A stretch of DNA of 64,000 nt from Mesonia aestuariivivens. GTDB taxonomy: Bacteria; Bacteroidota; Bacteroidia; Flavobacteriales; Flavobacteriaceae. Position numbers and translations under genes: made by a program. Numbering within the stretch: the first letter of the stretch is position 1; each line of letters starts with the position of its first letter. Location: NCBI RefSeq assembly GCF_019311235.1, contig NZ_JAHWDF010000001.1:62001-126000 (forward strand). The letters are read 5' to 3'. Of the stretch, positions 52,326 through 53,947 are shown piece by piece. The notes below the pieces were generated by a model. That model had not been told where the DNA came from, made no database searches, and was given only the letters and a program-made list of their open reading frames with translations.

Positions 52326-53192
52326 TTAAAGTACGTTTAAAAGTTGTTCTTTTATTTTTTCTAACTCGTCTTTCATTTGTACTACGAGTTTTTGCATAGG
52401 GGCGAAGTTAGATTTACTACCAATGGTGTTAATCTCTCTACCTATTTCTTGACCGATAAAGGCTAATTTTTTTCCATTAGCGCCAGAAGAGTTTAGGGTT
52501 TCCATAAAATAACTTAAATGGTTTTCTAAACGTGTTTTTTCTTCGGTGATATCGTATTTTTCGATGTAGTATACCAATTCTTGCTCAAAACGATTTTCAT
52601 CAACACTTTCCTTCAGTTCTGCAATTCCTTTTTGCAAACGTTCTTTTACGCCTTCAATTCGTTCAGGATCTATTTGTATCACTTCTTTTAATAATTGCTG
52701 AAGTGTTTCTACACGAAGTAAGAAATCTTTTTCAAGAGCATTTCCTTCGGCAGTTCTAAACTCATTAATCTCTAATAAAGCTTCTGTTAGGCCTTGGTCA
52801 ATTGCGTTAAATTCAGATTCGTCTATTTCGTCACGTTCTGTTTTTAACGTATCTGGTAGACGCATGGCAATTGCTAGTAGAGATGCTTCGTCTGCAGTTC
52901 CGTTAGTAGGAATTTCTTTTAATTGCTGAAGGTATTTTTTTACCACTTCTGTATTTACAGAGGCTGTGGTAGCTTCTCCAGTAACTTCTACATACAACGA
53001 GAAATCTACTTTACCGCGAGAAAGTGATTTAGCAATTTTGTTTCTCAAATCTAATTCACGTTCTCGGTATTGAGAAGGCATCCGAGCATTTAAGTCTAAA
53101 TTTTTACTGTTTAGTGATTTAAGCTCGATTGTGATTTTCTTGTTGGGAAGCTCGATCATACTTTTCCCAAAACCCGTCATAGATTGAATCAT
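52326..53192 (-). CDS. YicC/YloC-family endoribonuclease
   Basis: A 288-residue protein. The N-terminus MIQSMTGFGKS and SLNSKNLDLNARMPS are YicC hallmarks, and the C-terminal DUF1732 (GANGKKLAFIGQEIGREINTIGSK, in part, about 245-265) holds the conserved metal-binding Glu residues. Recent work on relatives shows RNA cleavage. First gene of an operon with gmk and nadD. A -7 box lies 21 bases before the ATG. Confidence 0.93.
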   Translation of the reverse strand: MIQSMTGFGKSMIELPNKKITIELKSLNSKNLDLNARMPSQYRERELDLRNKIAKSLSRGKVDFSLYVEVTGEATTASVNTEVVKKYLQQLKEIPTNGTADEASLLAIAMRLPDTLKTERDEIDESEFNAIDQGLTEALLEINEFRTAEGNALEKDFLLRVETLQQLLKEVIQIDPERIEGVKERLQKGIAELKESVDENRFEQELVYYIEKYDITEEKTRLENHLSYFMETLNSSGANGKKLAFIGQEIGREINTIGSKSNFAPMQKLVVQMKDELEKIKEQLLNVL

Positions 53193-53221: not shown

Positions 53222-53273
53222 ATAAAAACAATAAAGTATCTAAGAACTTCACTGTATTTGATTTTTGCAATAG

Positions 53274-53392
53274 GGATAGCAGCGGTATCTTTTTTAGTGG
53301 CAACCTTAAAGGTTTTAGTAAATCGAAATTAACCTATCACTAAAAAAATACGAGCGTATAGCCCGGCCCGTTAGGGATTGCCCAACTCATAT
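53274..53392. repeat. Structured GC-capped extragenic element
   Basis: A 15-base arm GTATCTTTTTTAGTG (53285-53299) pairs with CACTAAAAAAATAC (53338-53351), only one C bulging. Outside are GGGATAGCAGCG (53274-53285) and GTATAGCCCGGCCCG (53356-53370) with GGGATTGCCC, much richer in GC than anything nearby. The loop holds AACCTTAAAGGTT (53302-53314), itself palindromic. No coding frame. It resembles a dispersed extragenic repeat or structured RNA; only one copy was seen in the window. Confidence 0.55.
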
Positions 53393-53458: not shown

Positions 53459-53947
53459 ATGTACCATAAAGAATTTGAAATTAGATGGAGTGATGTAGAT
53501 GCTAATCGTCATTTAGCGAACTCTGCTTATATGAATTTTATGAGTCATACCCGTATGGCTTTTCTAATGGAAAACGGGTTTGGCCAGAAACAGCTAGCCG
53601 AATTAAATATTGGACCGGTGGTTTTTTATGAACATATCTATTATTTTAAAGAAGTTTTTGCTGGTAAACCAGTAACGGTAACCTTGCAGTTAAAAGGTTT
53701 ATCTGAAGATGGAATGTTTTTCGAGTTTTTGCACAATATCTATAATTATAAAGGTGACCATTGTGCCAGTTGTGAGATTTTAGGTTCTTGGATAGATTTA
53801 AAAGAGCGTACCTTAACTAAATTATCTCCAGATCTAATTAAAAATTTAGATCATCTTGGTAAAACTGAAGATTTTAAGATTTTAACAAAAGAGGACACGC
53901 GTCGCTACGGTAAAAAACCAAAAGCTATTGATCTTTCTGAACTTTAG
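53459..53947 (+). CDS. Acyl-CoA thioesterase, 4HBT hot-dog family
   Basis: A 162-residue hot-dog protein. WSDVDANRHLANSAYMNFM (residues 10-28) is the 4HBT/YbgC-type active-site segment. The rest follows the FadM/YbgC pattern of strands. Such enzymes hydrolyse acyl-CoA; the substrate is not predictable. It stands alone after a structured intergenic element, and its last 23 bases overlap the end of the convergent EamA gene. Confidence 0.9.
   Translation: MYHKEFEIRWSDVDANRHLANSAYMNFMSHTRMAFLMENGFGQKQLAELNIGPVVFYEHIYYFKEVFAGKPVTVTLQLKGLSEDGMFFEFLHNIYNYKGDHCASCEILGSWIDLKERTLTKLSPDLIKNLDHLGKTEDFKILTKEDTRRYGKKPKAIDLSEL

What the first reader, a model, noticed from the sequence alone, without database searches (positions are those of the whole stretch)
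53274..53392. Structured, GC-capped extragenic element upstream of the thioesterase gene
In an AT-rich spacer, a 14-base-pair stem (53285-53299 with 53338-53351, one bulged C) is flanked by GC-rich GGGATAGC and AGCCCGGCCCG / GGGATTGCCC blocks, and its loop contains a second palindrome (53302-53314). It is not a coding frame and not a terminator of either flanking gene, since these diverge. It looks like a dispersed repeat (REP/BIME-like) or a structured RNA. I have an unverified memory of similar AGCCCG...GGGA...GCCC blocks between genes in related genomes.
Basis: partly seen in the sequence, partly recalled or inferred. Interest (0 to 1): 0.55.

Follow-up and report, generated by a model that had tools for sequence, protein, structure and literature searches.

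The report
Flavo-1 dispersed repeat, extended three-way fold
This 120-base stretch between two genes is one of some three dozen scattered copies of a folded element called Flavo-1 in this bacterium's genome; comparing copies shows a bigger fold than was on record and an apparently unrecorded sister family with the same outer frame and a different centre, which gives new ways to test what these elements do.

Summary
The element (about 53264-53386, + strand) matches Rfam Flavo-1 (RF01705) at 41.0 bits, one bit under the cut-off. The genome holds 34 such matches at E < 1e-4, 23 over the cut-off; the copies at the same site in G004 and G006 pass it.

Pairing covaries strongly: 99.5% of 383 cells paired, covariation 0.527 against 0.187 shuffled. 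P0, perfect in 74 of 85 copies (shuffled mean 13.9), lies outside Rfam's structure.

New here: a sister family with the same frame but another core, unmatched in Rfam and clear in 88 of 199 sampled genomes. At two leu-operon sites some species have the Flavo-1 core, another the sister core.

It is not a RAYT-type REP. Copies show no orientation preference and no promoter. Best reading: a dispersed, non-autonomous repeat whose working form is one folded strand. How it spreads, and whether it acts as RNA, is open.

The parts
53264..53386 (+). whole Flavo-1 element (type with GGG/CCC foot, P0 and P2)
   Evidence: Rfam RF01705 match at 53262-53372, 41.0 bits, gathering 42, E 1.1e-7; edges from the fall of conservation outside P0 in 133 copies on the 5' side and 71 on the 3' side
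53267..53271 (+). P0 outer stem, 5' arm GCAAT
   Evidence: pairs with 53377-53381; all 5 P0 pairs have changes on both sides in alignment A2
53377..53381 (+). P0 outer stem, 3' arm ATTGC
53382..53383 (+). conserved CC after P0, the 3' edge of the element
   Evidence: 1.7 and 1.4 bits at these two positions over 71 copies, then at most 0.8 bits for six bases and near zero beyond
53273..53275 (+). foot of P1, GGG, pairs with 53362-53364 CCC
   Evidence: CNG/CNG in most copies from other genera
53277..53283 (+). P1 lower helix: T53277-A53360, A53278-T53359, G53282-C53355, C53283-G53354, with purine-rich internal loops between
   Evidence: C53283-G53354 is T-A in the copies at the same site in G004 and G006
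53354..53364 (+). 3' side of the P1 lower helix, down to CCC
53285..53299 (+). P1 upper stem, 5' arm (C53289 unpaired)
   Evidence: 14 pairs with 53338-53351
53338..53351 (+). P1 upper stem, 3' arm
53302..53314 (+). palindrome in the apical loop; the apical part differs from copy to copy
53367..53376 (+). P2 hairpin CCC-GTTA-GGG; length and sequence vary between copies, and some copies lack it
   Evidence: listing of 85 copies, read by eye
52326..53192 (-). yicC (YicC-like endoribonuclease)
   Evidence: Pfam PF03755 E 9.7e-39, PF08340 E 4.6e-38
53459..53947 (+). 4HBT-type thioesterase
   Evidence: Pfam PF13279 E 3.6e-21

Best explanation
SHOWN: this is a copy of Flavo-1, a dispersed intergenic element of Flavobacteriaceae with sharp ends (TTTGC...GCCCAA here) and a fold of three helices: outer stem P0, a long hairpin P1 with purine-rich internal loops, and an optional hairpin P2. 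SHOWN: a second element family uses the same frame (P0, GGGAT...AGCCCG, P2, terminal CC) around another P1 core, and at two sites one core stands in some species and the other core in another. SUPPORTED, not proved: the working form is one particular folded strand (the + strand here), because departures from Watson-Crick pairing are more often G-T than A-C when read on that strand. INFERRED: the elements are non-autonomous repeats that spread as a folded single strand, most likely ssDNA moved or copied in trans by an enzyme not identified here, and are overwritten in place by conversion from other copies. They work like REP or MITE repeats but are not RAYT-type REPs. Pressure on pairing remains after insertion. 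At this site the element is probably neutral cargo between divergent genes rather than a dedicated regulator of yicC or the thioesterase, because most genus relatives with the same gene pair lack it there.
For: Family match. 34 matches at E < 1e-4 in the genome. 123 of 199 sampled genomes of the family match at E <= 0.001, none of 14 control genomes does (at E <= 10 ten of the 14 ring, none over the cut-off). Covariation on 32 copies: 99.5% of 383 cells paired, 10 of 12 pairs changed on both sides, score 0.527 vs 0.187 (sd 0.016); partners slid by 1-3 columns pair 30-45%. P0 perfect in 74 of 85 Flavo-1 copies (shuffled mean 13.9, max 25) and 42 of 44 sister copies (mean 16.1, max 25). Orientation against flanking genes: of 30 own copies 11 sense to both neighbours, 12 antisense to both; G141 5 and 5 of 22 parsed, genus relatives 5 and 10 of 22; sister family 19 and 25 of 57. 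No Bacteroidetes-type promoter upstream: 2 of 136 vs 1.6 in shuffles; 5' flank information near zero. The window's site is occupied in G000, G004 and G006 and empty in the other 11 of the 14 genus genomes that keep yicC next door. Non-Watson-Crick cells in the six core pairs of 140 copies: 12 G-T, 2 A-C (both in one degenerate copy), 2 other, after 4 spurious parses were dropped; with P0 added, 16 copies have a G-T and 4 an A-C. Core exchange at two leu-operon sites.
Against: No transposase is linked to it; no target-site duplication could be read, since empty relatives are too diverged. No significant replication-strand bias: 31 leading, 45 lagging of 76 in two genomes, p 0.14. Copies in a genome are diverged, not a fresh burst of identical ones. 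Many sites are shared between species with pairing kept (28 scored comparisons, 308 pairs: 289 same, 10 changed on both sides, which are about 7 separate changes, 7 G-T on one side or the other, 2 A-C), as a host function would also give. The G-T excess is equally expected of RNA; copies were mostly found with an RNA model that tolerates G-U; the excess is p 0.027 if one doubtful parse is kept as a fifth A-C copy; in the sister family alone it is 6 against 2 copies, p 0.29. Orthologous copies are not independent. The sister family lies between divergent genes more than between convergent ones (11 against 1 of 57), though partly through repeated orthologues. The leu-site exchange could be one recombination event carrying both sites.
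Confidence: 0.5

Rival explanations
1. The sense-strand RNA is the working form: a structured RNA, read in UTRs, intercistronic spacers or from a start of its own, that binds a protein or is processed, present in many copies.
For: Rfam files it as an sRNA gene. G-T excess on the sense strand. Compensatory changes at orthologous sites. In F. psychrophilum several 5' transcribed regions coincide with Flavo-1 hits (PMC9723704, passages seen). Sister copies lie just upstream of the same gene, thyA by recall, in several genus members.
Against: About as many copies lie antisense as sense to flanking genes; no promoter signal. The same paper says hits are indistinctly sense or antisense of the transcribed regions and many lie in none.
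Confidence: 0.3
2. A double-stranded DNA site: cruciform or protein-binding repeat (nucleoid, supercoiling, insulation between genes).
For: Intergenic, both orientations, often a few bases from a gene end.
Against: Two pairs of P0 are nearly free in sequence but stay paired, which a protein reading duplex DNA would not need; G-T and A-C should be about equal if the hairpins of both strands mattered, against 16 and 4 copies.
Confidence: 0.14
3. A true REP moved by a RAYT (Y1 transposase).
For: Genomes with any Flavo-1 have Y1_Tnp more often (58 of 123 vs 14 of 76, odds ratio 3.95, p 4e-5); genome size was not controlled.
Confidence: 0.04

Closest known systems
Flavo-1 RNA (Rfam RF01705; Weinberg et al. 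2010, PMC2864571)
   Same: inner hairpin, internal loops, host group; the window copy aligns over the full model 1-76
   Different: Rfam's structure line leaves the P0 arms unpaired and does not reach P2's 3' side; the window copy scores one bit below the gathering score; the sister family with another core had no Rfam match
RAYT-type REP / BIME (PMC2817692, passages seen)
   Same: dispersed extragenic palindromes in which complementary mutations are preserved
   Different: about 120 bases and three helices, not 20-40 bases (size from the abstract of PMC3733652 in the listing); no RAYT flanked by them; no GT(A/G)G head
MITEs (recalled)
   Same: short, non-autonomous, dispersed, near-inverted ends
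   Different: ends vary from copy to copy and covary; no target duplication seen; no parent transposon found

Membership tests
Flavo-1 (RF01705) | covariance-model score at or above gathering (42 bits) | tested here: not met
   window copy 41.0 bits; copies at the same site in G004 and G006 50.2 and 56.5. Filed as Flavo-1 all the same, because those orthologous copies pass and the miss is one bit
Flavo-1 (RF01705) | full-length match to sequence and structure, E-value far below chance | tested here: met
   positions 1-76, E 1.1e-7; 23 other copies in the genome pass the cut-off
Flavo-1 (RF01705) | expressed RNA | not testable with these tools
   no RNA data; published F. psychrophilum statements are mixed
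RAYT-type REP | RAYT gene flanked by two inverted copies | tested here: not met
   PF01797 0 matches in own genome; 0 of 20 RAYT-like loci with RF01705 at gathering, 15 of them in Flavo-1-positive genomes
RAYT-type REP | GT(A/G)G head at one end of a short palindrome | tested here: not met
   5' edges read TTTGCNNNNAGGG or TTAGCC, by eye
MITE | target-site duplication | tested here: inconclusive
   empty relatives too diverged
MITE | presence/absence between relatives | tested here: met
   occupied in 3, empty in 11 of 14 genus genomes with yicC next door
MITE | autonomous parent element with the same ends | not tested
   only Y1_Tnp was sought; other transposase families were not

The most novel reading that the evidence does not exclude
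Flavo-1 and the sister family found here are two interchangeable cores of one modular element class, in which a conserved three-way-junction frame keeps its place in the genome while the core inside is swapped, spread by a strand-specific mechanism that does not use RAYT.
Probability: 0.33. Interest if true: 0.75.

Novelty: new variant of a known kind. Interest (0 to 1): 0.5.

Why it matters
Flavo-1 has been filed as an RNA since 2010 without a function. If it is instead a dispersed repeat that keeps one strand folded, annotation of flavobacterial genomes changes, and the question 'RNA or mobile DNA?' becomes a direct test. The sister family and the exchange of cores at orthologous sites give natural pairs on which to run it.

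Tried and rejected
RAYT link: rejected. Own promoter on either strand: no enrichment. Lagging-strand bias: not significant. Phage or plasmid vehicle: no match of a consensus query at E 0.01 in 50,697 phage and 72,556 plasmid records; an exact pattern hit 2 IMG/VR contigs, both with Flavo-1 matches over the cut-off, which may be host flank; a sister-core pattern hit none. Single-sequence folding: uninformative. Terminator of a flanking gene: rejected, the genes diverge. Rows dropped: 4 spurious parses before the G-T/A-C count, and at least one more of the 140 kept (L158) is doubtful; the parser itself gave 10 hits at its threshold in 492,288 shuffled bases, one strand. 13 of 41 orthologous stretches did not parse: two carry the sister core (L206, L214), two a Flavo-1 with a foreign insert (L191, L192), one is partly replaced (L199), two hold another repeat (L217, L218), L039 is the empty window site, and five are diverged or unresolved (L193, L224, L226, L227, L230). 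Four of the 34 own copies had no locus fetched and are missing from the orientation count of 30; a second ORF rule kept 24 own copies, 11 sense and 9 antisense.

Full report
WHAT IS THERE. The spacer between yicC (52326-53192, -) and a thioesterase gene (53459-53947, +) is 266 bases; Pfam confirms both genes. Folding this sequence alone gives nothing special (z -0.40); a stem as long appears in 3 of 200 shuffles of the spacer.

WHAT IT IS. cmscan gives RF01705 Flavo-1 over the full model, 41.0 bits against a gathering score of 42, E 1.1e-7; at the gathering threshold the window shows nothing, so a routine annotation would miss it. The same model finds 35 places at E <= 10 in the genome, 34 with E < 1e-4 and 23 over the cut-off; this copy ranks 24th. 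In the same genus G004 has 39, G013 39, G012 19 and G005 9 matches at E <= 0.001. In the family 123 of 199 sampled genomes have at least one; counts there are capped at 22 a genome. Contig lengths of G004 and G013 (215,339; 184,972 and 54,846) equal those of Mesonia mobilis DSM 19841 and Mesonia sp. UWMA-0090 records, so the genus is, by inference, Mesonia.

ARCHITECTURE. Aligning copies shows more than Rfam's hairpin. An outer stem P0 of five pairs (GCAAT 53267-53271 / ATTGC 53377-53381) encloses the long hairpin P1 and a small hairpin P2 (53367-53376). P0 is a perfect 5-bp match in 74 of 85 copies of this type; shuffling arms between copies gives 13.9 on average and at most 25 (the 3' arm was taken as the best 5-mer of the 3' flank in both cases; the copies are mostly from the own genome and its genus, orthologues counted apart). 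On a tool-made alignment of 32 copies (A2; copies with short loops from the own genome and genus relatives, window included), 99.5% of 383 cells pair, 10 of 12 pairs have changes on both sides, and the covariation score is 0.527 against 0.187 +- 0.016 in shuffles; sliding the partners by 1 to 3 columns pairs 30-45%. In most copies from other genera the foot of P1 is CNG paired with CNG, N varying with its partner, and the pair two bases on is A-T, T-A or G-C. After P0 come a conserved CC and a few A; beyond that little or no conservation, nor upstream of TTT.

A SISTER FAMILY. At two leu-operon sites G000, G012 and G013 have Flavo-1, while G004 has the same P0, GGGAT...AGCCCG foot, P2 and flanks around another core, GAGYGATT(T)GTTGRAGCTCTTTTT...AAAAAAGCGACTCRCGA; G005 has that core at two places 2.2 kb apart, one of which was read and has the same leuB-side flank. 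A pattern for the core, up to 3 mismatches, matched in 15 of 16 genus genomes, at 12 places in the own genome, and in none when read backwards. Forty-four distinct copies have P0 perfect in 42. On 23 of them the proposed structure pairs in 87.8% of cells with covariation 0.184 vs 0.075 in shuffles; P0 pairs in 99.1% and the GYG/CRC helix in 89.9%, the other helices covary little, and a slide by -1 column still scores 0.149 (53.8% paired), so the support rests on P0 and GYG/CRC. Rfam gives no match to these copies (8 loci at E <= 1; 20 at E <= 0.01, where the one sub-threshold Flavo-1 hit lies about a kilobase from the sister copy; 8 more at E <= 0.01). A covariance model finds 128 of 199 genomes at E <= 0.001; because it also reaches Flavo-1 copies through the shared frame, down to 3.5e-10 in five genus genomes, I count only E <= 1e-10: 88 of 199, 79 of them also with Flavo-1, and 13 places in the own genome. 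An exact pattern in the 84,980-species collection gave 76 stretches, all with titles of flavobacterial genera (family membership by recall) except one 'Bacteroidia bacterium'. Text searches (listings seen, apart from passages of the papers named below) showed no description of such a sister family; the library holds open-access papers only.

BEHAVIOUR. Copies sit between genes in both orientations: of 30 own copies 11 read with both neighbours, 12 against both, 5 in convergent and 2 in divergent spacers (simple ORF calls). No promoter motif precedes them. At the window's site 3 of 14 genus genomes with yicC adjacent (adjacency read by eye) hold the element (G000, G004, G006) and 11 do not; C53283-G53354 is T-A in the other two, and P0's last pair T-A is A-T in G006. 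Over 15 own loci, 28 of 41 orthologous stretches parse as Flavo-1; of 308 pairs 289 are the same, 10 changed on both sides with pairing kept (about 7 separate changes, since related genomes share some), 2 are G-T where the own copy is paired, 5 paired where the own copy is G-T, 2 A-C. The other 13 include decay, foreign inserts, replacement by other repeats and the two core exchanges. So copies are old and structurally constrained, but are lost and overwritten too.

WHICH STRAND. In the six core pairs of 140 copies, 12 cells are G-T, 2 A-C and 2 other once four false parses are removed. With P0 added, 16 copies carry a G-T and 4 an A-C; a doubtful fifth A-C copy makes it p 0.027. Two of the 16 (L174, L181) look like orthologues. 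Sister family: 6 against 2, p 0.29. Equal numbers are expected if only duplex DNA mattered. The bias towards G-T is what RNA or one DNA strand would give; the search models also favour it somewhat, so I hold it as support, not proof.

MECHANISM. RAYT is excluded as the present driver here and unsupported elsewhere. Orientation neutrality, no promoter, sharp ends and presence/absence point to a mobile or formerly mobile repeat; strand-specific folding points to a single-stranded form. ssDNA mobilisation in trans with conversion between copies is my first choice and is inference; a transcribed RNA is the main rival, helped by the published overlap with some 5' transcribed regions (PMC9723704, passages) and weakened by the same paper's remark that hits are sense or antisense alike. 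Weinberg et al. 2010 was seen as passages, PMC9029176 as passages, PMC3733652 and PMC2817692 as passages.

Noticed in passing
L018 (own contig C32) 256-2301: A C5 cytosine methyltransferase gene is interrupted: its N part and C-terminal part are separated by an HNH endonuclease gene and a small ORF, with one Flavo-1 copy at each end in inverted orientation; the contig is only 4.3 kb, so an assembly fault is possible.
   Followed up: partly
L019, L021, L023, L276, L293, L316 apical loops: Other palindromes (such as CTTCTCGACTCCGCTCGAAGTGACA and ATTCCTGCCTACGCAGGAAT) are nested in the apical loop of several Flavo-1 and sister copies, as if the loop were a landing place for other repeats.
   Followed up: no
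L271, L273, L285, L289, L292, L295, L297: A sister-family copy lies just upstream of a gene starting M(K/Q)QY(H/L)DL...GDRTGTGT (thymidylate synthase by recall) in several genus members.
   Followed up: no
L071, L076-L078, L082, L085, L092, L097, L101, L109: Flavo-1 copies from ten genera share one flanking site, antisense to a gene starting like MFNVDDIRKDFP (cysteine desulfurase by recall; read by eye).
   Followed up: no
L141-L160: Several RAYT-like genes in this family have varied short palindromes of their own beside them (for example CACGCTGGCGCGAGCATCATGCTCGTG in L158), read by eye.
   Followed up: no
L427 1827-1913; L428 5094-5170: Two IMG/VR contigs carry Flavo-1 copies well above the cut-off.
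   Followed up: no
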